A program made the translations under genes and the position numbers. A DNA stretch of 27,351 nt from a virus, in IMG/VR virus record IMGVR_UViG_3300025264_000087, positions 1 to 27,351 of that record. One strand, given 5' to 3'. The notes beneath the pieces are model-generated. The model did not search any database and was not told where the DNA came from. It saw only the letters and a list, made by a program, of their open reading frames with translations. Within the stretch, counting starts at the first letter, position 1, and every line of letters begins with the position of its first letter. Shown here piece after piece: positions 3,432 through 27,229 of this stretch.

Positions 3432-3878
3432 TTAACTTGCCTCCCATTTGAGCTTGCCTTGAAGGGGATGTGTATCCACTCGGGGGCGGCTTGGAGTATT
3501 CCATCCACGACCTGCTGTTTGGGTTTGGCCTAGGCATTTCCAGCCTGCACCACGGAGGCTGTCACCGCTCTCACTTTCCAGGGTATAGGTGATGAGTTTT
3601 GTGTAGCCCATTGCTTTTGCAGCACGCCAGCAGGCACCGTACAACATTGAGCAGGCGTTCCTACTACCATCGGTAGCTACGCGGTTGACCTCCAAGGTCC
3701 AACCGTTATCCACTACCCGAGACACTGGCCTTCCAACAATAGCTACGCCTCTCACTTCATCCTTGTCATCAGCCACAGCGATTGAGAACTTGGAGCCAGG
3801 GACTGGCTTGTGATGACGATGATGTTGTTCCACGAAGGCGTTCGCTTCAGCTAGTGTTGTCGGTACGATTCGTAGCAT
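3432..3878 (-). CDS. XF1762/Mom-like GNAT-fold phage protein
   Basis: The ATG at 3878 follows AAGGAAA with good spacing and gives 148 aa beginning MLRIVPTTLAEANAFV; the longer frame from 4037 would only add overlap with the upstream gene. The HHRHHKPVPGSKFSIAV start, the middle GVAIVGRPVSR, the EVNRVATDGSRNACSMLYGA helix and the GYTKLITYTL strand match a widespread phage family annotated as XF1762, with a GNAT-like fold related in outline to the Mom DNA-modification proteins. Its partner genes here are a C5 methyltransferase and a PAPS-reductase-like protein, so a role in DNA modification is reasonable but inferred. It overlaps the upstream gene by 32 bp. Confidence 0.65.
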   Translation of the reverse strand: MLRIVPTTLAEANAFVEQHHRHHKPVPGSKFSIAVADDKDEVRGVAIVGRPVSRVVDNGWTLEVNRVATDGSRNACSMLYGACWRAAKAMGYTKLITYTLESESGDSLRGAGWKCLGQTQTAGRGWNTPSRPRVDTHPLQGKLKWEAS

Positions 3879-4131
3879 TAAACTTTCCTTCAAACCGCTT
3901 TCTTGTCTCATCTTCCCAATGTCCCATGCGTAGTCCTTCGTTATCAGCACGGCCTTCCATCGGGGTGTTGACACGTTGCACCTCGAGCTTCCGCACGTAG
4001 GCCCACTGCTTAATCCATGACTCATCCACCACGTCACCGCCCGGGATGTGATAGCGATTAAGATTGCTGATGTCCTGCACGAATTCGTACGGACCTACCA
4101 CTAGGTTATAGCGTGGCACTTGACGTTCCAT
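3847..4131 (-). CDS. Hypothetical protein, 94 aa, between methyltransferase and GNAT-like genes
   Basis: ATG at 4131 is preceded by GGAGGAG on the minus strand, a strong ribosome binding site, so it is preferred over the ATG at 4146. The start lies inside the end of the methyltransferase gene (26-bp overlap). The product begins MERQVPRYNLVVGPYEF, has WIKQWAYVRKLEVQRV in the middle and a charged C-terminus. No family recognised. Overlaps on both sides show it belongs to the same transcript. Confidence 0.6.
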   Translation of the reverse strand: MERQVPRYNLVVGPYEFVQDISNLNRYHIPGGDVVDESWIKQWAYVRKLEVQRVNTPMEGRADNEGLRMGHWEDETRKRFEGKFNATNRTDNTS

Positions 4132-5149
4132 GCATCTCCTCCTCAATGTCTAAGATCATACGACCTAAGCGCTCCACCACTTGGGGCACCACGGCATTAC
4201 CTAATCCTTTAAGTCGGTCCACCCGATGGGGAACCCCATTAGCCACTCGACCCACGTCGGGTTCAGGCTCCCAGTGTTGGGCGACTGGCCCACCACTCTG
4301 CTCAGGTTCGGCGTGTTGCGATCCCCAATCCCCTCCACTCTGCCATCCTTCCAATCTCTTGCCGCCGGGGTTGGCCACAGGGCGACTGCGCTCTCCAGAT
4401 CGCTGGGTTGCTTGCGCTTCTCTCGAATCAACTTCTTCGGATCGGCTCCGTACTTCGGACCTCTCGGTGTTGGCCACATCTTCACTGCTGTTGCCAGACC
4501 ATCCCCGCTGTTCTTGCTCAACCCCTTGCGATTGTAGTTGCCGTTCTGGGTGGGGGTCGGCCATAGGTTGTGACGTGCCATCGTGTCCAAGCTGGGCATC
4601 CCTGCTCCCTTGAACGTTGTGCCGTCCTTGCGTTGCCCATTCTGCCCCGTTCCGTAAGGCTGGGCCGTTGGCGTGGGCACAAATCCAGACTCGATTGCGA
4701 ATGTGGTGGGCATCTGCGGCACAAGCCGGAATAACAAACGCCCCTGCGGAGTAACCCGCTTCTTCCAGATCAGCGAGGCACTGGTCGAGTTCCATACTGA
4801 TGATTCCAGGCACGTTTTCGCCAAGCACCCAAGCTGGCTGAACCTCCCGTATAACTCGTAACATCTCCGGCCAGAGATGGCGGTCATCTTGCTTGCCTCG
4901 CTGCTCCCCAGCGTGGGAGAAAGGCTGGCAGGGGAACCCTCCGCAAACAAGCTCAACTGCCCCTTGGTATTGTCGTCCATCGATCTTCCTTATGTCCTCA
5001 TGGATGATGGCATCAGGCCAGTGCTTCTGCAGGATACGCCGACAGAACGGCTCAATCTCACAGAAGGCCACGGTCTCCATGCCTACCCGCTCGAGACCCA
5101 GGCTAAACCCCCCGATCCCGCTGAACAAATCAAGAACTCTCATGCCCAT
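4106..5149 (-). CDS. dcm: DNA (cytosine-5-)-methyltransferase
   Basis: Start at 5149 (GGGAG nine bases upstream) gives 347 aa beginning MGMRVLDLFSGIGG; the longer frame to 5275 would overlap the upstream gene. C5-methyltransferase motifs are in order: motif I DLFSGIGGFSLGLE, motif IV GGFPCQPFSHAG with catalytic Cys, motif VI ENVPG, motif VIII HIRNRVW, and motif X GLGNAVVPQVVERLG. The target-recognition region is odd: low complexity, rich in Gln/Ser/Arg/Glu, with recurring HAN, MADP, VANT and VANP words. That stretch also encodes a second protein in another frame (4201-4980), which probably explains its composition. It likely methylates phage DNA to evade restriction. Confidence 0.88.
   Translation of the reverse strand: MGMRVLDLFSGIGGFSLGLERVGMETVAFCEIEPFCRRILQKHWPDAIIHEDIRKIDGRQYQGAVELVCGGFPCQPFSHAGEQRGKQDDRHLWPEMLRVIREVQPAWVLGENVPGIISMELDQCLADLEEAGYSAGAFVIPACAADAHHIRNRVWICAHANGPALRNGAEWATQGRHNVQGSRDAQLGHDGTSQPMADPHPERQLQSQGVEQEQRGWSGNSSEDVANTERSEVRSRSEEVDSREAQATQRSGERSRPVANPGGKRLEGWQSGGDWGSQHAEPEQSGGPVAQHWEPEPDVGRVANGVPHRVDRLKGLGNAVVPQVVERLGRMILDIEEEMHGTSSATL
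4201..4980 (-). CDS. WPTP-repeat phage protein nested in the methyltransferase gene
   Basis: A 259-aa frame lies wholly inside the methyltransferase gene in a different frame on the same strand. It has its own ribosome binding site (AAGGAAG, complement of 4985-4991) before the ATG at 4980. The protein has recurring VPTPT/LWPTPT/MWPTP/LWPTP words and ends in SLNPTWVEWLMGFPIGW, a C-terminal signature I recognise from proteins found beside phage cytosine methyltransferases. The WPTP words and the VANT/ANP words of the methyltransferase are two readings of the same DNA. Function unknown; a role with the methyltransferase is inferred from the locus. Confidence 0.7.
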   Translation of the reverse strand: MDDNTKGQLSLFAEGSPASLSPTLGSSEASKMTAISGRRCYELYGRFSQLGCLAKTCLESSVWNSTSASLIWKKRVTPQGRLLFRLVPQMPTTFAIESGFVPTPTAQPYGTGQNGQRKDGTTFKGAGMPSLDTMARHNLWPTPTQNGNYNRKGLSKNSGDGLATAVKMWPTPRGPKYGADPKKLIREKRKQPSDLESAVALWPTPAARDWKDGRVEGIGDRNTPNLSRVVGQSPNTGSLNPTWVEWLMGFPIGWTDLKD

Positions 5150-5167
5150 TCCGTTATACTCCCAGTG

Positions 5168-5185
5168 TGCATCCACCCCGATGCA
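5168..5185. promoter_or_regulatory. Dyad upstream of the methyltransferase start
   Basis: TGCATC (5168-5173) and GATGCA (5180-5185) form a perfect 6-bp dyad with a 6-nt gap, ending 19 bp before the start codon at 5149. It could be an operator or a leader hairpin. Confidence 0.3.
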
Positions 5186-5246
5186 TGAGTGAAAAAGCAC
5201 GGGGATAAGCGGTTCTTGTTTCCCAAGGCAGGGATCGCCTCCCCTT

Positions 5247-6092
5247 TCATACCCCACACATCCCGTCGCATTCATCCATAAAGCTAAACGTTGCTTGGCC
5301 CTCTGCCGGATCGGCTAGGTCAGCATCACGTAAGGGTGTGAGGGTTCGATGAATGTACAGTTGTTGAGATGTCCCTCGCACACCTTCTCGCACGGCTTCA
5401 TCCACCATGCAGGCATCTTCCCAAGATTCAGGGTCACTGCTCTTCATCTCCCGCCATGTCGCATTGTCATGATAGGGACAGAAAGTGCATGCTGATTTGC
5501 TAGGCAACTGGTTGTACCCATGATCTTGTAACCACTCCAGGCATTGCAGCCGAGTCATATGCTCCTCAATGAGGGGCCATCGATGACGTTGCCATGCTTC
5601 TCTTGGTTCTTTCATGCGCTGCATTTCATCCCAAGAGATACCAATCCATTGTTCAGCAAGGATCTTCACCTTCCCTGCCTCATCTTTAGGTGCGCGTTGC
5701 CTAGGCTTTAGACCTACCAGATCCCTAACCTTCTTGTTGATAGGTTGGATCTTGTATTCATTGGTACATTGCCGCCGAAGCATGCCTTCACGCTGTCCTA
5801 GTTCGGAGGTCGTGTAAAAGGGAGACCCAGCGAAGCGTCCTACAAAAGAACCATCTTCGTTTGCGGTCGTGGATTCCAAGATGGACTCACGTAAAGAACC
5901 TTTGGTTACCTTGTGTACAGGGAAAGGCAGCTGCGTTTCCAGCCAACTCAACCATTCATAGACACGGGTAGGCTCAGCCTGAGTATCAGCAAAAATTGCA
6001 CAGTCAGGCATGGGTGTAATCTCACCATGAGCTGCCATCAATGCCATCGTTGAAGACTGCACGCCCGCACCTAATGAGATAACAGTTAACAT
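5247..6092 (-). CDS. PAPS-reductase-like / adenine nucleotide alpha-hydrolase family protein
   Basis: The 281-aa protein opens with MLTVISLGAGVQSSTMAL, a variant of the PP-loop SGGxDS nucleotide-binding motif, followed by an Asp-rich strand ending ADTQAEP as in PAPS reductase folds. Later are RRQCTNEYKIQPI and SKSACTFCPYHDNATW, cysteine motifs typical of the phage members, and a CDGMCGV tail. Such proteins are common next to phage methyltransferases. Relatives act in sulfate activation, phosphorothioation (DndC-like) or base modification, but the substrate here cannot be read from sequence. Start overlaps the stop of the upstream gene (TAATG). Confidence 0.78.
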   Translation of the reverse strand: MLTVISLGAGVQSSTMALMAAHGEITPMPDCAIFADTQAEPTRVYEWLSWLETQLPFPVHKVTKGSLRESILESTTANEDGSFVGRFAGSPFYTTSELGQREGMLRRQCTNEYKIQPINKKVRDLVGLKPRQRAPKDEAGKVKILAEQWIGISWDEMQRMKEPREAWQRHRWPLIEEHMTRLQCLEWLQDHGYNQLPSKSACTFCPYHDNATWREMKSSDPESWEDACMVDEAVREGVRGTSQQLYIHRTLTPLRDADLADPAEGQATFSFMDECDGMCGV

Positions 6093-9251: not shown

Positions 9252-9800
9252 ATGAAGATTAAAAAGAACAAAATCTATGAAGAGGGTGCTTCCCCGATAA
9301 ACAAACTTGCTGTACGGATGCTCTGGCGTGGAGAAAAGTACGAACCGCCCCATAAGTTTCTTAATTGTTTTAAGACTCAACCCTCGCTCTATCAACTTCC
9401 TTCAGATCAAGGAAGCAACGTTACATTGGTAAATCATTTAAGAACTATGACTGGAAAGCGATTTGGCAGGCTTGTCGTACTTGGTAAGCATCAACCAGAT
9501 AAAAACTATCTTGCCGTTGTAAAGAACGCAAAACTCCATAACTTTCTTACAAAACCCCCAAAGAAAACAGCCTCCGATATTTTAGCCTTCGAAGAGAAGT
9601 ATAAAAAAAGGCAGCACAACGGGGGTCACGCTAAATGGGTCTGCCGTTGTGACTGTGGTAATTACTGTCTTCAGTACACAAGATCTCTAAAGAACGGCCG
9701 TGGAAATCTCTGTTCTGAATGTGAGCATTTAGAATACATGAAAGGCAAGACATCACAAAAATCAACCAACCAAAAGGAGGACATAAATGTCACTACTTGA
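9252..9800 (+). CDS. Zinc-ribbon phage protein
   Basis: 182-aa basic protein. MTGKRFGRLVVLG at about residue 66, then WVCRCDCGN and, after a SLKNGRGN turn, LCSECEHLEY: this is the zinc-ribbon module often seen in phage proteins and at the N-terminus of AP2/HNH homing endonucleases. No HNH or AP2 domain follows here. Lys-rich N-terminus (MKIKKNKIY). It is more A/T-rich than its neighbours, a weak hint of separate origin. The last 14 bp contain the start and strong ribosome binding site of the Sak4-like gene. Confidence 0.62.
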   Translation: MKIKKNKIYEEGASPINKLAVRMLWRGEKYEPPHKFLNCFKTQPSLYQLPSDQGSNVTLVNHLRTMTGKRFGRLVVLGKHQPDKNYLAVVKNAKLHNFLTKPPKKTASDILAFEEKYKKRQHNGGHAKWVCRCDCGNYCLQYTRSLKNGRGNLCSECEHLEYMKGKTSQKSTNQKEDINVTT

Positions 9801-10545
9801 AGCTGTCTCTCGTCAAGGAGAGATCCCGCCCCTACGAATGAACATTCAAGGGACGGATGGAATTGGTAAGAGCACGTTTGGAACGGGTGCTCCTGACCCG
9901 ATCTTCATCCAAGCAGAGGATGGCCTTAGCTACTTAGATGTTGATCGCTTCCCTCTATGTAATACATGGAGCGACCTGATGGATCAGGTTGAGACGTTGT
10001 TCAAGGACGACCACAAATTCAAGACCGTCGTGCTTGATACCACGGACGCCGCCGGGAATCTTTGCGAACAGCATGTTTGTGAAGATAACTCATGGAAATC
10101 TATCCAAGCACCTGGCTGGGGCAAAGGGCCAGCTGAACTGCGCCTTGTGTGGGCACATCTTCTTGATGGACTCAACGCACTGCGAGTGGATCGCCAGATG
10201 AATGTGATCTTACTCTCGCATGTCGAGGCAAAGATCTTCAGTGATCCGAGTGAAGGAGACTACAACCGCTGGGAAATGCGTTGCGATAAGAACGTCAATG
10301 CGTTGATCAAGGATTGGGTGGACTTCAATTTCTTTGCCAACTACGAGCTCAACAAGATCTCTGACAAGCAAGAGAGAAAGAACCGTGCCATTGCGTATGG
10401 AAAGCGCAAGTTGTTCACGAGCTTCAATGCTTCGTTCGATGCGAAGTCACGCTTGGAACTTCCCAAGGAACTTGAATTCACTTGGGAATCTTTCGCTGAT
10501 GCCTACACCAAGGCGCTATCTAATCAACAATCTAAAGCCGCGTAA
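9787..10545 (+). CDS. Sak4-like RecA-fold recombinase (AAA_24 ATPase)
   Basis: 252-aa ATPase with Walker A GTDGIGKST (22-30) and Walker B KTVVLDT (Asp near 84), the short RecA core of the phage AAA_24/Sak4 family. ILLSHVEAK in the middle corresponds to the sensor strand after Walker B. Sak4 proteins are single-strand annealing/recombination ATPases helped by a phage SSB, and the next gene is an SSB-like DUF669 protein, as expected. AAGGAGG at 9774-9780 gives a strong ribosome binding site. Downstream helicase and exonuclease genes complete a recombination module. Confidence 0.82.
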   Translation: MSLLEAVSRQGEIPPLRMNIQGTDGIGKSTFGTGAPDPIFIQAEDGLSYLDVDRFPLCNTWSDLMDQVETLFKDDHKFKTVVLDTTDAAGNLCEQHVCEDNSWKSIQAPGWGKGPAELRLVWAHLLDGLNALRVDRQMNVILLSHVEAKIFSDPSEGDYNRWEMRCDKNVNALIKDWVDFNFFANYELNKISDKQERKNRAIAYGKRKLFTSFNASFDAKSRLELPKELEFTWESFADAYTKALSNQQSKAA

Positions 10546-10557
10546 GGAGAACGAACG

Positions 10558-11028
10558 ATGGCATTTGACAAGCTAGACCTGACCCAAGTTGAAGACACCA
10601 GTGGTGACTTCGAGCCTATCCCTGATGGGAAGTACATGTTGCAAGCAGTTCATTGGAAGGATGATCCGTCAAGCACAGGAAGACCCATGCTGACTGTTCA
10701 GTTCTCAGTGGCAGAAGGTAATTATCATAACCGCATAATCTTTGAGAACTTTGTCTTAACGGAACCCGTTGCCTTGGGACGCTTGAAGTCTTGGGTCGCT
10801 TCTTGTGGGTTGGAATCGGAGATTAAAGACTTCAACTCTTCGCACATGAATGACTTGATGAACAAGAAGTTCCGAGCCAACGTCAAGATTCAGCCGCCAA
10901 AGGATGGTTACGGGGCATCCAATGGAGTGAAGTCTTTCCTACGTCCAAGCAATGGTGATCAAGCTCAAGAGGCCGAGACACCTGCTGCTGAGGCACCGGC
11001 TCAATCTAAACCCAAGTGGAGCAAGTGA
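10558..11028 (+). CDS. DUF669-family SSB-like protein
   Basis: 156-aa protein. FEPIPDGKYMLQAVHWKD, a GRPMLTVQFSVAEG strand and the NRIIFENFVL, LGRLKSWVASCGL and FRANVKIQPPKDGYGASNGVKSFL blocks match the DUF669 family, which serves as single-stranded DNA-binding partner of phage recombinases. The C-terminus is Ala/Glu/Pro-rich and flexible, ending KPKWSK instead of the usual acidic SSB tip. AAGGAGA upstream. Directly follows the Sak4-like gene. Confidence 0.78.
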   Translation: MAFDKLDLTQVEDTSGDFEPIPDGKYMLQAVHWKDDPSSTGRPMLTVQFSVAEGNYHNRIIFENFVLTEPVALGRLKSWVASCGLESEIKDFNSSHMNDLMNKKFRANVKIQPPKDGYGASNGVKSFLRPSNGDQAQEAETPAAEAPAQSKPKWSK

Positions 11029-11043
11029 TTGGAGGAAGACGAT

Positions 11044-11304
11044 ATGTATCGCATGTTATTTGAAGATCCAAATAACCCAGAGCGGGAAGAGATCCTCAAT
11101 ATCATCGCTGACTGTATCGATGACCTGAGTGATCAAGGGTTTGATGACAAGGATGTCATCGAATGCACAGTTAAATACGCGCTCACGTTAGCTTACTTAA
11201 TGACCACGGAAGAGAGCATGGATGAGCTAGTCGAATCCATTAAAACCAGCGCTCTAGAAGTCAGAGAGCAAGCCATGAAAGCAAATAAGAGGAATCTCAA
11301 TTGA
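11044..11304 (+). CDS. Hypothetical acidic protein, 86 aa
   Basis: ATG at 11044 follows GGAGGA (11031-11036) and is preferred over the TTG at 11029. The product is acidic and mostly helical (EREEILNIIADCIDDLSDQGF, DELVESIKTS), without motifs I know. Its stop overlaps the start of the Tas-like gene (TTGA), so the two are probably coupled in translation. Whether it has anything to do with the Tas system is open. Confidence 0.6.
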   Translation: MYRMLFEDPNNPEREEILNIIADCIDDLSDQGFDDKDVIECTVKYALTLAYLMTTEESMDELVESIKTSALEVREQAMKANKRNLN

Positions 11305-12164
11305 TTAATACGCAAAAACTTTCGCTGCGTGCTGCTGTTAAAGGCATGTATGCCATTCAAAAAACACGGATCAAGGTAGGCAACAACATCGTTGCAAACT
11401 TTAAGGTGAAGCTAGGGCAAGAACCTGGCAAGCCGGAAGAGGAGTTGGATGCTGATGCCAAGATGTTGCTGAGCCAGCTGCGACTCTCTTTCAAAAAGAT
11501 CACCGAAGGGGTGGTGTCCATGACGCCAAAGAAGTTTAAGGCCGATGGCATTATCTCAGACTACACCGAGTACGCTTTGATCCAGCAGTACATCCAGCTT
11601 GAAGAAGCTGAGAGTACTTCGTTACGTAACATTCACTATGCGGTACGTAACTTCCCCATCTACTACACCTTCCTTGAAGAAGTTAAAGGATGTGGTCCGT
11701 TGATGGCGGCAGTCATCATCAGTGAGTACGACATTCACAAGGCCGAGTACCCGAGCTCACTGCATAAGTATGCTGGGCTGGACGTGGTCAAAGGTGAGGG
11801 GCGATCCCGTAAGGCGCATCACCTTGAGGACGATACCTACCTTGATGCCAATGGTAAGGAACAGACCAAGAAGTCGATCACTTTCAATCCTTTCCTGAAG
11901 ACCAAGTTGATCGGTGTCTTAGGTAGCTCCTTCATTAAAACGGGGGGGTATTACCGCACGGTTTATGACAACTACAAAGAGCGACTTGCCCACATGCCTG
12001 CTCATGAAGAGAAGAGCAAGGGCCATCGTCACAACATGGCCGTGAGGTACATGGTCAAGAGATTCCTCGTGGATCTTTATGTGGCATGGCGGAAGCTTGA
12101 AGGATTGCCAGTGGCATCTGAATACAGTGAGGGGAAGTTAGGGATTAAACACAAGGCGGCTTAA
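11301..12164 (+). CDS. tasA: Tas-like protein (Nop/IS110 C-terminal-like), nuclease-less, of a TIGR array
   Basis: 287 aa, TTG start overlapping the previous stop, AGAGGA seven bases upstream. Residues about 42-116 are helical; 126-258 resemble the Transposase_20 region of IS110 elements and, by extension, the Nop domain of Nop5/Nop56: VKGCGPLMAAVIISEYD, LHKYAGL, NPFLKTKLIGVLGSSFIK, YYRTVYDNYKERL and AVRYMVKRFLVDLYVAWRKLEG. There is no IS110 N-terminal DEDD/RuvC domain and no HNH motif, so it is not a transposase. A 36-bp-period dual-repeat array starts at its stop codon. In TIGR-Tas systems a Nop-domain protein binds 36-nt guide RNAs; the nuclease-free form is TasA. It would be an RNA-guided DNA-binding protein. 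Function is inferred from family and array. Confidence 0.8.
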   Translation: MINTQKLSLRAAVKGMYAIQKTRIKVGNNIVANFKVKLGQEPGKPEEELDADAKMLLSQLRLSFKKITEGVVSMTPKKFKADGIISDYTEYALIQQYIQLEEAESTSLRNIHYAVRNFPIYYTFLEEVKGCGPLMAAVIISEYDIHKAEYPSSLHKYAGLDVVKGEGRSRKAHHLEDDTYLDANGKEQTKKSITFNPFLKTKLIGVLGSSFIKTGGYYRTVYDNYKERLAHMPAHEEKSKGHRHNMAVRYMVKRFLVDLYVAWRKLEGLPVASEYSEGKLGIKHKAA

Positions 12165-13033
12165 GCCAAAAAAGACTAGACAACCAGAAAATTCGAGCGA
12201 GCCACATGACCCAAGACAACCAAATTCCTCGAGCGAGTCATTGTAACGAAGACAACCAATGGATATCAGCGAGCCAGATGGTCCAAAGACAACCATGGGA
12301 GAAAAGCGAGCCATGAGCAACGAGACAACCACCGAAAGGGAGCGAGCCATCTGCAAGGAGACAACCAGAAGAAAAAAGCGAGCCATGGGAAAATAGGAAC
12401 CCATTAACCTGAAATGAGCCAGAAAACGGGAGACAACCACACATCGTTAGCGAGCCAGAAAACAGCAGTCAACCAATATGTAAAAGCGGGCCAACTGTAT
12501 ATAGAAACCCAACTGACGTTAGCGAGCCAGAAATGGGGAGACAACCACTGTGCACGAGCGAGCCATTGGGTGAGAGACAACCACTGAGCATGAGCGAGCC
12601 AGCTGAACGAAGAAAACCAATGTTGTGCAGCGAGCCATGGAACACAAGAAAACCACGCTTCCTTAGCGAGCCATTGGGTGAGAGACAACCACTGAGCATG
12701 AGCGAGCCATCGGTAAGGAGACAACCAGCGGTGTAGAGCGAGCCACGGAAATCAAGACAACCAGCAATGAAAAGCGAGCCATATGCAATGAGACAACCAC
12801 CGAATGGAAGCGAGCCAGAGAAGAAAAGACAACCAGTGGCAGCAAGCGAGCCAATCCGCCTGAGACAACCACGATCACAGAGCGAGCCATTGCGGATGAG
12901 ACAACCAAAACTGCCAAGCGAGCCATGAGGATCAAGACAACCAATCTTACGGAGCGAGCCATTGCCCAGAAGACAACCAACGAACAAGAGCGAGCCGAAA
13001 TCAGGAAATCACCCTATGGATAAGAGCGAAACA
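12160..13033. repeat. TIGR-like array: two alternating 9-bp repeats with 9-bp spacers
   Basis: Core 12178-12997 has 23 copies of R2 (AGACAACCA, 18 exact) alternating with 23 copies of R1 (AGCGAGCCA, 19 exact), separated by 45 spacers, all 9 bp except one of 10 bp at 12277-12286. Period is 36 bp. R1 and R2 share A-G-x-x-A-x-C-C-A. Degenerate units extend to both edges: CTTAAGCCA at 12160-12168 overlaps the tas stop codon and AGCGAAACA at 13025-13033 touches the helicase start. Poorly conserved repeats lie in the middle (12395, 12413, 12467, 12485, 12503). It is not a CRISPR: repeats are far too short, two kinds alternate, spacers are 9 bp and no cas gene is near. The layout equals that of TIGR arrays processed to 36-nt tigRNAs. 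Transcription is probably plus strand with the operon. Confidence 0.92.
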
Positions 13034-14700
13034 TGAAGTTACGTTACTACCAACAAGAAGCCCTTGACGGTCTAAACCATTGGTTTGCCACGCAGTCTCG
13101 TGATGCGTACCCACTCCTTGTGTTACCCACGGGGAGTGGGAAAACCATTGTGTTTGTCTCGTTGATCAAAGAGATCCTCGAGATCGCACCCGAGAACCGC
13201 ATCCTCATCTTGGCTCACCGCCAAGAGTTGATTGCTCAGGCTAAAGATAAACTGCTCATGGTCTGGCCCGATGCACCATGCAGCATCATGGCGGCAGGAC
13301 TTAAAGAGTTCGATGCCAGTGCCTCCATTGTGATTGCCAGTCGAGACACCTTGGCCTCCAAGAAACGTCTTGAAGCAGCACCTCCCTTTGATTTCATTGT
13401 GGTGGATGAAGCCCACCATGTGTCACTTCAAACCGAAACTCAGTACCGCAAGATACTGGATCACTTCAGGGAGTTGGGCGATCCGTGGATCATGGGCTGC
13501 ACGGCTACGCCTTATCGCATGGGCCAGGGCTACATCTATGGATTACAAGATCAGTTCTTTCGAGGAGTGGCTTATCAAGCAGGCATCCCCGAGCTCATTA
13601 AACACGGTCATCTTTCTCGTTTGTCTGCGTTTGCTGTGAACAAGCAGGCCGTCATCGATGCATCCAAAGTACGGCTTAAATTTAAGGGCGGTGACTATCG
13701 GGAAGGCGAGCTTGCAGAACTGGCTATGCATGAAGAAACCATCTTGGCCATCATCGCTGATTGGATTGATAAGGCTTACACCAAAGGTCGTCTTAGCACG
13801 GTGTTCTTTTGCGTGACCATTGCTCATGCCGAGAAGATGACGCACTTCTTGAGAGAAGCAAAGATATCAGCTGCACTTATTACTGCTGAAACTCCCAACG
13901 ATGAGCGAGCTCAGATCCTTAAGGACTTTGAGAACGGTAAGATTAATGCGCTATGCAACGTTGCTGTGCTGACCGAAGGTTGGGATGCACCACGCACTGA
14001 CTGCATTGCTATCCTACGTCCCACTAAATCACTGGGCCTTTATGTCCAGATCTGTGGCCGTGGCATGCGTCCATGGGGAGAGAAAGAGAACTGCCTACTT
14101 CTAGACTATGGTGAGAATATGGAACGTCATGGCTGCATTGATGTGGCGAAACCGCCCACACCTGAAGATGAAGAGAAGGAAAAGATCTGGATTTGTGATG
14201 CATGCCTGCATGTGAATCCCATCGATGCACCCCTATGTGGAGAGTGCAAGGCGCCGAAGCCCCTTCCTGAGATCGTGGAGTCCGATGTGATTCCTTTTGA
14301 GGAAGCAGAAGAAGATGCAGCGGCTGCTCGTATTGCCGCCAAAGGCAATGTGCTTTCGGATGAACTGAAAGAAGCACCGATTCAAGAGAAGGTGCATGAC
14401 ATAAAGAATGTCACGGCCGAAGTGAAGGTGTCAAAAAAAGGCAACACGTACTGTGGGATCTCTTTCTTTACTGAAGATAGTTTCTATCCCTACAGCATGG
14501 CTCTGATGATCGGCATGTATGGGCGTGTGGGTGTTAGATCCATGGCGCAATGGCGCAACTTAACTCAATGGCCTCATGACTTACCGCTGGATGTGGATGA
14601 AGCCGTTAGGCAAATAAATCTGGGGGCTTTCAACAAAATCTCCTCTATCACGGTACGTAAGGAAGGAAAATACTGGAATGTTGTTGGAACTGGATTCTGA
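13033..14700 (+). CDS. SF2 DEAD/DEAH-type helicase with zinc finger
   Basis: 555 aa. Motif I LPTGSGKT (31-38), motif II VVDEAHH (DEAH 125-128), motif III TATP (157-160), and C-terminal motifs including LTEGWDAP (313-320) and QICGRGMRP (339-347) identify an SF2 helicase of the SSL2/COG1061 or type III restriction-subunit-like group, common in phages for recombination or replication restart. A four-cysteine zinc finger follows (C388, C391, C402, C405), then a charged linker and a small C-terminal domain with VTAEVKVSKKGNTYCGI. The start codon touches the last degenerate array unit and has only a weak ribosome binding site, so translation may depend on read-through of the array-containing transcript. 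Overlaps the exonuclease gene by 23 bp. Confidence 0.85.
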   Translation: MKLRYYQQEALDGLNHWFATQSRDAYPLLVLPTGSGKTIVFVSLIKEILEIAPENRILILAHRQELIAQAKDKLLMVWPDAPCSIMAAGLKEFDASASIVIASRDTLASKKRLEAAPPFDFIVVDEAHHVSLQTETQYRKILDHFRELGDPWIMGCTATPYRMGQGYIYGLQDQFFRGVAYQAGIPELIKHGHLSRLSAFAVNKQAVIDASKVRLKFKGGDYREGELAELAMHEETILAIIADWIDKAYTKGRLSTVFFCVTIAHAEKMTHFLREAKISAALITAETPNDERAQILKDFENGKINALCNVAVLTEGWDAPRTDCIAILRPTKSLGLYVQICGRGMRPWGEKENCLLLDYGENMERHGCIDVAKPPTPEDEEKEKIWICDACLHVNPIDAPLCGECKAPKPLPEIVESDVIPFEEAEEDAAAARIAAKGNVLSDELKEAPIQEKVHDIKNVTAEVKVSKKGNTYCGISFFTEDSFYPYSMALMIGMYGRVGVRSMAQWRNLTQWPHDLPLDVDEAVRQINLGAFNKISSITVRKEGKYWNVVGTGF

Positions 14701-15784
14701 AGAGTACTGTCAGGCGCTGGTTACGCGCATTGATGACAAGGTTAAGGAGCTAGATCAACGCTATCGGGGGCACCTGGGGTTCAGTGGCATTGGTGATTCG
14801 GATGAGCGCAAGCTCTGGCTGAACTTCCGCTGGTGCCTGCCGCCTACCTTTGAAGGCCGCATGCTACGTCTGTTCGATCTGGGCAATCACATTGAAGATC
14901 AGGTGATTGAACATCTAGGCAACGTCCTACCTGTTGCCGCCAAGGATGAGGATGGAGAACAGTTCAACACTTCTTTGCTAGGCGGCCACTTCGCTGGGTC
15001 CACGGATGGTCTAGTCAAAGATGTGTTCCCTGCTCCCAATGAAGACACCATGCTGCTCTTGGAAGTAAAGAGTGCTAATGACAAACGCTTTAAAGAACTG
15101 GCCAACAGTGAGGACTATGAGGGATGGTCAGAGACTTATCGATGGCAGATCCATTGCTACATGGGTGCTTTCAATCTGGAGTACGCCCTCGTGGTGGTCT
15201 ACAACAAAAACACCAGCCATCTGTACACCCAGATCATTCCGTTTAACGAGAAGATTTGGGAGAAAGCTCAAGAGAAAGCTCAACGGATCATTGAATCTTC
15301 TGTGCCTTTTACTGCAGGGAAATCTGAATCCGCATGGGAAATGAAGTACGAGGCTCAGATCTTCAAGGACATCTACTTTAAACGGCGTCTACCGCCCTCT
15401 GCCAACTGTCGTAACTGCCTGAGTAGTAAACCCTTAACCTCCTCAAACGGCGCTGTGTGGTTCTGTAGGAGGCATGAGGCGGCCCGTAGTATTGAAGACC
15501 AACGGGCTGGATGTGAAGACCATCTATGGATACCTGACCTGGTGAACGCCGATCACTTCCCAGAGCAGAGCACGGACGATGTGATTGCCTACACCAAGGA
15601 AGGGAAAACGTTTACCAACGCCATCAAGAAAGAAATAGGGGCCATGGCTTTCAGTAGCGTTGAGATGCGCGAGCTCTCAAAGATAGACTTCGATGCCAAC
15701 GTGATGGAACACATGGAACCTTTACGTACTGAGTTTAACGGCCACTACATAGAGGCCATGAATGAGGATGAAGACGCTTTTTAA
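14678..15784 (+). CDS. PD-(D/E)XK exonuclease, RecB/Cas4-like
   Basis: 368 aa. FSGIGDSDERKLW near the N-terminus, GNHIEDQVIEHL (69-80), AGSTDGLV with Asp 110, and LLLEVKSAND with the E-x-K pair (129-131), then YRWQIHCYMGA, form the catalytic core of the phage RecB/Cas4-type nuclease family. NCRNCLSS and a later Cys-x-x-x-His segment could bind a metal or an Fe-S cluster as in Cas4/AddB. Expected role: processing of double-strand ends for Sak4/SSB recombination. ATG lies inside the helicase gene after AAGGAAAA. Its stop shares TTAA (15781-15784) with the converging gene. Confidence 0.8.
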   Translation: MLLELDSEEYCQALVTRIDDKVKELDQRYRGHLGFSGIGDSDERKLWLNFRWCLPPTFEGRMLRLFDLGNHIEDQVIEHLGNVLPVAAKDEDGEQFNTSLLGGHFAGSTDGLVKDVFPAPNEDTMLLLEVKSANDKRFKELANSEDYEGWSETYRWQIHCYMGAFNLEYALVVVYNKNTSHLYTQIIPFNEKIWEKAQEKAQRIIESSVPFTAGKSESAWEMKYEAQIFKDIYFKRRLPPSANCRNCLSSKPLTSSNGAVWFCRRHEAARSIEDQRAGCEDHLWIPDLVNADHFPEQSTDDVIAYTKEGKTFTNAIKKEIGAMAFSSVEMRELSKIDFDANVMEHMEPLRTEFNGHYIEAMNEDEDAF

Positions 15785-25055: not shown

Positions 25056-25458
25056 CAAATTGGTGTGGATCACTGATTCTTTCTAGGTCATCACCTACTC
25101 TTGCGGTCCCTCGATTGATCATTTTCTCCAGTAATTCAGGCTTGGTCATGCTCAGCATGTTGAGATCGTGCTTCGCAAACTTCCCACGGAGTTCAGTTAT
25201 CTCTTCTTGTGCTTCAGAACTGGCGGTAGAGAGTTGAGTAATACGAGCCTGACTCTCCTGCTGCTTCTGTAACTGCTCTTCTATTCGAGTGTTCTGGGTA
25301 GAGATGGTGCTTTCCAGTAGCTCTTGGTTGTTCATCGCCTGTTGCAACTGCGTAGCCATAGCCTCTTTCTCAGCTTCTGACTTGTCATAGTACAACTTGA
25401 AAGCCCCTCCCATCCCAGCGATGACAAGGAGCAAAACTGCGGATAACTTAAATCCCAT
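25018..25458 (-). CDS. Inner-membrane spanin (i-spanin)
   Basis: 146 aa: a single N-terminal membrane segment (FKLSAVLLLVIAGMGGAF, about 3-20), then a long Gln/Glu-rich periplasmic coiled coil (about 28-95) and an acidic tail. This is the form of an Rz-type i-spanin. It overlaps the o-spanin start by 38 bp and the cyclase stop by 11 bp. No holin or endolysin is seen in the window. Confidence 0.7.
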   Translation of the reverse strand: MGFKLSAVLLLVIAGMGGAFKLYYDKSEAEKEAMATQLQQAMNNQELLESTISTQNTRIEEQLQKQQESQARITQLSTASSEAQEEITELRGKFAKHDLNMLSMTKPELLEKMINRGTARVGDDLERISDPHQFDEDDTTDTPATE

Positions 25459-27229
25459 CTTTTAAGGTATACACTTTAAGTGGTTCCGATTTTCCCTTGA
25501 CCTGTATGGAATCCACATACTCGGCCCAATCGGGGCGATATTGTACCGTAGATTCCCCAATCAGAATCCAAGCTTCGTAATTGCGCGTCTGGCCCTCGAG
25601 CCTTGAACCTACGTTGACGGCATCCCCGAGCACAGAATAATCAAATCGACTCTGACTCCCCATGTTCCCCACCACGCATTGCCCTGTATTGATACCTACT
25701 CCGATGTTGAGATGAGGCAATCCTTCCGCATCCAGCTGAGCATTGAGATCATCCAAGATAAGTAACATGTCTCTAGCCGTCAGCATGGCTCGTTCAGCAT
25801 GATCCTCACAATCCAAGGGCGCACCCCAGAAAGCCATGATGCAATCGCCCATGAACTTATCCACAGTGCCTCCGTGACGGAGCACACAATCGGTTAACTG
25901 TGTTAACAATCGATTAATAAGTTCGACTAATGCTTGAGGGTCTTCCTGTAACTTTTCTGAGATCGGTGTGAATCCCACAATGTCAGAGAAAAGAAACGTC
26001 ATGGTCTTGGTTTCACCACCCAAGCGAAGAAGCGATGGGTCATTTTCTAACTGCTTCACCAAGTCAGGTGAAACATATGTACCGAACTGTCCTCGAATCT
26101 GTAGCTTGAGACGATATTCAGCGATCATTCGCTGGGCAATCCCTGTTCCACCCACCAAAAAGCTCGTTAACAGGGGAAATGCGCCATCAATGAGGATTCC
26201 TAAGCGAACATAGCCGTAGACCGACGCAGAGGCTGCTAGAGCACCGCTGCCAATAACTAATGCCCCAACCCAAGTTACAGCTAAGAATCGCGTGACGAGC
26301 GTTGTCGTAAGCCCAAAAATGAGCATCGCCAGAAATTCAGCACTTAATGCCCAATCGGGACGAACAGGTGCCGTTCCTTGGATTAATGTCTCAAAAAGTG
26401 CTGCTTGAATCCGATGCGGATGCAATTGACCCATCGGCGTTGGCACCATCGGACTAATTCCTGCCGCCGTCACCCCAACAAAAACAATTCGACCTTCTAC
26501 ATTAGAAGTCAGGGTGGTATTCCAATCTACCCACACCCGTCCGACGCTATCTGTTTCGATGGTATTAAAATTAGGAACACGCACAGCTTGGATACCTGCG
26601 TCACCTGCCTTCACTTGGTAACTAGGATCACCTGCTAATCCACGCAACACATCCAAACCTAATGCCGGATACAACGCATCGCCCACACGGATGACCATCG
26701 GCACCCTTCGAACAAGACCGTCTACTTCAGGAACTGAATTCACTACACCCGTACCCACAGCATTTTCTTGCAGCAATGCAACGTTAGGGAGAATGCCTGG
26801 ATACTGAAGCGTGTTTTCTTTAACAGGCCCAAGTGTAGCTACACCAATATGCCAACCTTCCTGACGCGTAGTGTCCGTGGTCGCCACTGCTGAAAGAAAC
26901 GTAGGCAACCGCTGCATGCTTTCGGCAAATGTCTGATCACCACCAAAGCGATCTGTCTCAGGGAAGAGCACCGTGTACACCACAGCCGATGCTCCTTTGG
27001 CCAGTAGCTCATCATTGAGCGCAGCCAACTGACTACGAGGCCACGGCCATTGACCATGGGTAGCTAACGCATCCTCATCGATGTCATGAACAGCCAAGTA
27101 CTCGCTGGGTCTTGGGTCGCCTAAAGAAAACAACGCATCAAAGTATTTAAGTCGAAGGGTTTCTACCGGCCATGGATCGAAAATGCGTAACGCTACCAAC
27201 CCAACAAGCACTACCAACGCATGTTTCAC
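25448..27229 (-). CDS. CHASE2-domain class III adenylyl cyclase
   Basis: 593 aa: TM1 (about 3-16), an extracytoplasmic CHASE2 sensor (about 25-290, with LAVHDIDEDALATHGQWPWPR), three TM helices (about 296-366), and a class III cyclase domain (about 405-590). Metal-binding Asp in LFSDIVG (D416) and FMGD (D462), substrate-selecting Lys in VDKF (K458) and Asp in LGDAVN (D536), and the Asn/Arg of VNVGSRLEG (N539, R543) are all present, so an active enzyme making cAMP is expected. The layout is that of bacterial sensory cyclases. The 11-bp overlap with the i-spanin gene ties it to the phage. The GTG start sits inside a parS-like site. Known in bacteria; unusual on a phage. Confidence 0.88.
   Translation of the reverse strand: MKHALVVLVGLVALRIFDPWPVETLRLKYFDALFSLGDPRPSEYLAVHDIDEDALATHGQWPWPRSQLAALNDELLAKGASAVVYTVLFPETDRFGGDQTFAESMQRLPTFLSAVATTDTTRQEGWHIGVATLGPVKENTLQYPGILPNVALLQENAVGTGVVNSVPEVDGLVRRVPMVIRVGDALYPALGLDVLRGLAGDPSYQVKAGDAGIQAVRVPNFNTIETDSVGRVWVDWNTTLTSNVEGRIVFVGVTAAGISPMVPTPMGQLHPHRIQAALFETLIQGTAPVRPDWALSAEFLAMLIFGLTTTLVTRFLAVTWVGALVIGSGALAASASVYGYVRLGILIDGAFPLLTSFLVGGTGIAQRMIAEYRLKLQIRGQFGTYVSPDLVKQLENDPSLLRLGGETKTMTFLFSDIVGFTPISEKLQEDPQALVELINRLLTQLTDCVLRHGGTVDKFMGDCIMAFWGAPLDCEDHAERAMLTARDMLLILDDLNAQLDAEGLPHLNIGVGINTGQCVVGNMGSQSRFDYSVLGDAVNVGSRLEGQTRNYEAWILIGESTVQYRPDWAEYVDSIQVKGKSEPLKVYTLKDGI

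What the first reader, a model, noticed from the sequence alone, without database searches (positions are those of the whole stretch)
11301..13033. A phage-borne TIGR-Tas-like RNA-guided system
A Nop/IS110-C-terminal-like protein without a nuclease is directly followed by 23 pairs of alternating 9-bp repeats with 9-bp spacers and a strict 36-bp period. The period equals the 36-nt length of tigRNAs, each carrying two short spacers. This is the expected form of a TasA-type TIGR system: programmable DNA binding without cutting. Possible uses are silencing competing phages or plasmids, regulating host genes, or marking phage loci during replication.
Basis: partly seen in the sequence, partly recalled or inferred. 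Interest (0 to 1): 0.97.

Follow-up and report, generated by a model that had tools for sequence, protein, structure and literature searches.

The report
Phage TIGR-TasA guide-RNA array
A marine phage carries a nuclease-free member of the recently described TIGR-Tas family, a protein plus 24 tiny paired guides that should steer it to matching DNA without cutting; the kind is already published, but its many relatives show how such guide arrays mutate, shed units and swap their two halves.

Summary
The protein at 11301-12164 scores above NCBI's curated cut-off for TIGR-Tas proteins. A family profile finds solved TasR (E 7.5e-23) and TasH (3e-16), and the predicted fold matches them at Z 20-21. 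The N-terminal RuvC, HNH or DEDD nuclease is missing, so it is a TasA. The array (12160-13033) has edge repeat AGCGAGCCA, loop repeat AGACAACCA and 24 units of about 36 bp. [quoted passage not shown] Relatives in 91 distinct arrays keep the layout, and their edge repeats covary at exactly two base pairs. The kind, including phage-borne TasA, was published in 2025, so this is a new member of a known kind. New in detail: spacers diverge by point substitutions, units are lost whole, two unit pairs occur with A and B swapped, and the cassette sits in mostly unrelated phage contexts. I found no natural target: spacer pairs match neither their own phages nor about 1.5 Mb of other TIGR-phage DNA above chance. 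A weak three-base periodicity in spacer variation hints at coding targets, but two candidate target genes contradict each other.

The parts
11301..12164 (+). tasA: Nop-domain TIGR-associated protein without nuclease domain (287 aa, TTG start)
   Evidence: NCBIfam NF052498 above cut-off; PDB profile hits to TasR and TasH; VIA-align Z 21.3 TasH, 20.1 TasR, 14.9 IS110-type recombinase
12160..12168 (+). 5'-truncated edge repeat (cttaAGCCA) that opens the array and overlaps the tasA stop codon
   Evidence: sequence read directly; register of the array
12169..13033 (+). TIGR dual-repeat array: 24 units of spacer A, loop AGACAACCA, spacer B, edge AGCGAGCCA
12277..12286 (+). the only 10-nt spacer (gatggtccaa); it shifts the frame, so no continuous reading frame runs through the array
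12395..12421 (+). degenerate loop (aggaaccca) and edge (aatgagcca) copies inside the array
12557..12592 (+). unit 12 (ttgggtgag / ctgagcatg), first copy
12665..12700 (+). unit 12, second identical copy, 108 bp downstream
12989..13033 (+). decayed 3' end of the array (agcgagccg, aatcaccct, agcgaaaca) overlapping the ATG of the helicase gene; no terminator
9787..11304 (+). upstream same-strand genes: Sak4-like recombinase (9787-10545), DUF669 ssDNA-binding protein (10558-11028), small ORF (11029-11304, overlaps the tasA start)
13033..15784 (+). downstream same-strand genes: RadD/ResIII-type helicase (13033-14700), Cas4/PD-(D/E)XK exonuclease (14678-15784)

Best explanation
A phage TIGR-TasA system. 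The array is probably transcribed with the replication/recombination operon around it and cut in each edge repeat into 36-nt tigRNAs (24 units). Two TasA protomers hold one tigRNA by its edge and loop repeats; spacers A and B pair with opposite strands of two adjacent 9-bp sites. With no nuclease domain, the complex should open, bend and occupy the target without cutting. I think its most likely use is to repress or block genes or replication of other mobile elements, or of the host, sharing the cell. Shown here: gene, array, family membership, fold, absence of a nuclease domain, repeat covariation, spacer divergence and natural A/B swaps. Inferred from Faure et al. 2025: processing, RNP and strand-wise targeting. 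Inferred only: target identity and biological role.
For: NCBIfam NF052498 TIGR_Tas 126.4 bits against a cut-off of 100. Profile to PDB TasR 9mty 7.5e-23 and TasH 3.3e-16. Fold Z 21.3 (TasH) and 20.1 (TasR, rmsd 1.9 A over 196 residues), aligned to TasR residues 110-319 only, so the RuvC part is absent. tblastn to Salicola phage CGphi29, which carries the published TasH, 5e-8. Array anatomy against 0.01 expected by chance. The same cassette in 154 loci, 91 distinct arrays. Edge pairs 2-7 (G-C 28, A-U 50, G-U 12 of 91) and 3-6 (C-G 85, U-A 6) covary while loop G2 and C7 stay (nearly) fixed. Swapped A/B units: 2 at distance 2 against 0.02 expected.
Against: The literal 'UG' box D of TasR is 'AG' here, and no rho-independent terminator follows the array. 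No target found: spacer pairs do not match their own phages, other TIGR phages or AP2-HNH phage contigs above re-paired controls. No expression data.
Confidence: 0.93

Rival explanations
1. A truncated IS110-family transposase with a repeat region: a decayed transposon, not a guide system.
For: Pfam Transposase_20 (E 7e-5), PHROG 4285 labelled transposase (1.9e-33), fold Z 14.9 to an IS110-type recombinase.
Against: No DEDD domain; NCBIfam IS110 model 17.5 bits against a cut-off of 140 while the TIGR-Tas model passes; TasR and TasH fit better in sequence and fold; the gene is intact and strongly conserved across about 90 arrays.
Confidence: 0.02
2. The array is a coding repeat, or a CRISPR-like array with an unrelated neighbour.
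For: 36 is a multiple of 3, so long frames stay open on both strands.
Against: One 10-nt spacer breaks any frame; repeats are conserved at all codon positions and spacers are free; repeats are far shorter than CRISPR repeats and of two alternating kinds; the array accompanies Tas in nearly all relatives.
Confidence: 0.02
3. Same system, but used on the phage's own DNA (for example replication or recombination, given the neighbouring Sak4, SSB, helicase and exonuclease genes) and not on foreign DNA.
For: The cassette lies inside a recombination/replication operon, a context shared by L040, L041, L043 and L044.
Against: No spacer pair matches its own or related phage DNA above re-paired controls; in most relatives the neighbouring genes are unrelated.
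Confidence: 0.07

Closest known systems
TIGR-TasA, dual-repeat type (for example Flavonifractor plautii FpTIGR; Faure et al. 2025, PMC12045711)
   Same: Solo Nop protein next to an array of edge / spacer A / loop / spacer B with 9-nt spacers and 36-nt units; [quoted passage not shown]
   Different: Repeats start AG, where TasR arrays have UG; no terminator, the array runs into the next gene; 24 units, above the usual 5-15; tas gene embedded in a recombination operon. FpTasA itself was not compared by sequence here
SpTIGR-TasH of Salicola phage CGphi29 and TaTasR (PDB 9w04, 9mty)
   Same: Homologous Nop domain (E 5e-8 by tblastn to the Salicola phage, fold Z 20-21); phage-borne in the case of SpTasH
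   Different: Those carry an HNH or RuvC nuclease at the N terminus; here the protein begins directly with the helices that follow the nuclease in TasR and TasH
IS110 / IS621 bridge-RNA recombinases
   Same: Shared RNA-binding fold (Z about 14.5-15)
   Different: No DEDD domain; an array in place of a transposon-borne bridge RNA
Box C/D snoRNP protein Nop5/Nop56/58
   Same: Distant Nop fold (Z about 7.5)
   Different: Middling Z, not decisive by itself; no fibrillarin or L7Ae partner seen in the window's annotated genes

Membership tests
TIGR-Tas (dual-repeat) | Nop-domain Tas protein of the TIGR family | tested here: met
   NF052498 126.4 bits, cut-off 100; PDB profile hits TasR and TasH; Z 20-21
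TIGR-Tas (dual-repeat) | Adjacent array of two alternating 8-12-nt repeats with about 9-nt spacers | tested here: met
TIGR-Tas (dual-repeat) | 36-nt unit, with the edge repeat truncated at the start and end of the array | tested here: met
   cttaAGCCA at 12160 and agcgaaaca at 13025; 36-bp period with one 10-nt spacer. The 3' end is decayed more than cleanly truncated
TIGR-Tas (dual-repeat) | Box C 'CCA' at the 3' end of both repeats | tested here: met
   CCA in both consensus repeats of the window; in the 91 arrays the loop always ends CCA and the edge CCA or TCA
TIGR-Tas (dual-repeat) | Edge-repeat pairs supported by covariation | tested here: met
   positions 2-7 and 3-6 covary
TIGR-Tas (dual-repeat) | Box D 'UG' at the 5' end of both repeats (stated for TasR; said to diverge in other arrays) | tested here: inconclusive
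   here AG in both repeats
TIGR-Tas (dual-repeat) | Rho-independent terminator after the array (typical, not stated as universal) | tested here: not met
   none on the + strand between 9000 and 15000; a typical feature, not treated as defining
TIGR-Tas (dual-repeat) | 36-nt tigRNAs bound by the Tas protein; tandem-spacer DNA targeting | not testable with these tools
   needs small-RNA sequencing and binding assays
TasA subtype | No N-terminal RuvC or HNH nuclease | tested here: met
   model residues 3-287 align to TasR 110-319 and 1-287 to TasH 63-302; only Transposase_20 found in Pfam
IS110 transposase | N-terminal DEDD domain plus C-terminal domain | tested here: not met
   no DEDD hit; aligns only to residues 123-321 of the IS110-type recombinase; IS110 model far below cut-off
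CRISPR-Cas | Single repeat of about 25-36 nt with similar-sized spacers | tested here: not met
   9-nt repeats of two kinds and 9-nt spacers

The most novel reading that the evidence does not exclude
Phage TIGR-TasA arrays follow the drift of conserved protein-coding targets in other elements: spacers change like codons (three-base spacing of changes, in one family fully synonymous), the same site is re-acquired in either orientation (A/B swaps), and the array is a mutable guide store aimed at core genes of competitors such as a recombination exonuclease.
Probability: 0.2. Interest if true: 0.82.

Novelty: new member of a known kind. Interest (0 to 1): 0.5.

Why it matters
TIGR systems were described in 2025 with their natural targets and the way arrays grow both unknown. 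This locus and its relatives in viral contigs give a comparative set (91 distinct arrays, about 1,300 unit pairs) in which array change can be watched: substitutions in spacers, loss of whole units, and A/B swaps that suggest, from natural sequences, that a unit is read symmetrically. The negative result, no targeting of own or sister TIGR phages, narrows where targets should be sought.

Tried and rejected
(1) Self or sister-phage targets: 351 to 1,289 spacer pairs scanned against own and related DNA, in both orders with gaps of 0-2 (0-5) and up to 2-3 mismatches; no excess over re-paired spacers. (2) AP2/HNH homing endonucleases as a general target: a codon-degenerate scan for one spacer family in order B-NN-rc(A) gave 10 hits, 2 of them in frame in AP2-HNH genes, but scoring all 913 units against an AP2-HNH profile showed no excess. 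(3) The same family in order rc(A)-N-B gave 24 hits, 4 of them in frame at AYCMAHD, following ..QLA or ..QIA, in what reads as a PD-(D/E)XK-type exonuclease gene of other phages (two distinct sequences; the family name is my reading, not a tool result); no other spacer hit those phages above controls. The two leads exclude each other, so neither is claimed. (4) Three-base periodicity of spacer changes: lag-3 44 against 31 expected (p 0.002) and A/B phase 70 against 53 (p 0.0013), but p 0.06 when A and B change sets are re-paired between families, and a synonymy test gave at most z 2.1 over 10 settings: suggestive only. (5) Exact scan for the duplicated unit 12: 5 hits in 2 unrelated sequences, as expected by chance. 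(6) One more swapped family gave 2 hits, not informative. (7) Rfam: no hit. (8) Host of the window phage: not resolved. (9) A first structure model from 13 sequences was poor (pLDDT 69) and was replaced by one from 58 (pLDDT 85).

Full report
Observation. The window is a 27,351-bp virus record with phage genes: a terminase small subunit, a virion structural protein, a Mom-like DNA modification gene, a primase-polymerase, a Sak4-like recombinase, an SSB, a helicase and a Cas4-type exonuclease. The composite repeat pattern occurs 21 times against 0.01 expected.

Identity. The protein passes NCBI's curated TIGR-Tas model (126.4 bits, cut-off 100) and is far below the IS110 cut-off. Profiles of its family find solved TasR (7.5e-23) and TasH (3.3e-16) and nothing else in the PDB. 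A model built from 58 relatives (pLDDT 85) matches TasH (Z 21.3, 2.8 A over 220 residues) and TasR (Z 20.1, 1.9 A over 196), then IS110-type recombinases (Z about 14.5-15), then Nop56/58 (Z about 7.5, middling). The alignment begins at TasR residue 110, TasH residue 63 and IS621 residue 124, so the RuvC, HNH and DEDD parts are missing: TasA. By tblastn the protein is related to a protein of Salicola phage CGphi29, the phage that carries the published TasH, and to one of Acidianus tailed spindle virus.

Array anatomy against the published rules (PMC12045711). The A-rich AGACAACCA is the loop repeat and AGCGAGCCA the edge repeat; both end in the box C motif CCA. Across 91 distinct arrays the edge repeat covaries at positions 2-7 (G-C, A-U, G-U) and 3-6 (C-G, U-A), while G2 is nearly always kept in the loop repeat and C7 always. 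This matches the published edge pairs (box C/D pair plus one more). Differences: the repeats begin AG and not UG, and there is no terminator; the array ends on the ATG of the helicase gene.

Relatives. brought in viral and three genome-derived loci; 154 loci carry a parsable array next to tas, up- or downstream. The neighbouring genes of the window are shared as a block only by near-identical contigs and by L040, L041, L043 and L044; elsewhere the Tas cassette has mostly unrelated neighbours, which points to a transferable module.

How arrays change. Among 1,199 units with two 9-nt spacers, 63 pairs differ by one base and 40 by two, against 0 and 0.02 in column-shuffled controls. One near-identical contig (L003) has lost unit 8 as a 36-bp deletion between like sequences. 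Two unit pairs at distance 2 (and one at 3, where 0.7 is expected) have A and B exchanged: taataaaga|gtggtacgt with gtcgtacgt|tgataaaga, and cagatttgt|cacggagca with cacggagca|gagatttga; 0.02 expected at distance 2. This fits the reported equivalence of swapped tigRNAs in vitro. Spacers are purine-rich (60%), with C rare (7%) at the ninth base.

Targets. No spacer pair matches own, related or other TIGR-phage DNA (about 1.5 Mb) above re-paired controls. Variation within spacer families shows an excess of three-base spacing that is suggestive but not robust. One family decodes without amino-acid change to AHxAYC or AYCxAH depending on target order; viral scans give an AP2-HNH lead for one order and an exonuclease lead for the other, with no second spacer to support either. 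I do not claim a target.

Mechanism. By homology to systems tested by Faure et al.: processing in the edge repeat, a TasA dimer on one 36-nt tigRNA, tandem pairing of A and B to opposite strands, and DNA opening and bending without cleavage. The role (repression or blocking of a co-resident element or the host) is inferred.

Verdict. A sound new member of a known kind. The interest lies in the comparative set of arrays, which makes questions of array change and targeting approachable, more than in the locus alone.

Noticed in passing
window 4201-4980 (-) inside 4106-5275 (-): A second long ORF (259 aa) lies in another frame inside the C5-methyltransferase gene; both frames match phage protein families (phrog_1008 E 1.8e-29; phrog_363 8e-84) and the inner one has relatives in 80 phage records, often under a methyltransferase or hypothetical-protein annotation. 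It may be a true overlapping gene.
   Followed up: partly
window 25448-27229 (-): CHASE2-guanylate/adenylate cyclase gene in a phage fragment (Pfam CHASE2 2e-36, cyclase 8e-21; phrog_35576 5e-183); unusual phage cargo or host flank.
   Followed up: no
window 3432-4037 and 5247-6092 (-): Mom-like DNA modification gene and a PAPS-reductase-like gene that also hits SspD, next to a C5-methylase: a possible DNA modification cluster.
   Followed up: no
all arrays in the loci fetched (L002-L278): Spacers are purine-rich (60%) with C depleted (7%) at position 9, just before the next repeat, in both A and B.
   Followed up: partly
L261, L263, L269 (records G039, G041, G044): Tas relatives with longer open frames (345-361 codons) and the match split in two pieces, suggesting an insertion in the protein.
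   Followed up: no
L370 2154-2852 (-), L385 4733-4751 (-): A site coding AYCMAHD in an exonuclease-like gene of other phages lies within one to two mismatches of the spacer pair acaatatgc/tggcgcatg of L018; a weak target lead.
   Followed up: partly
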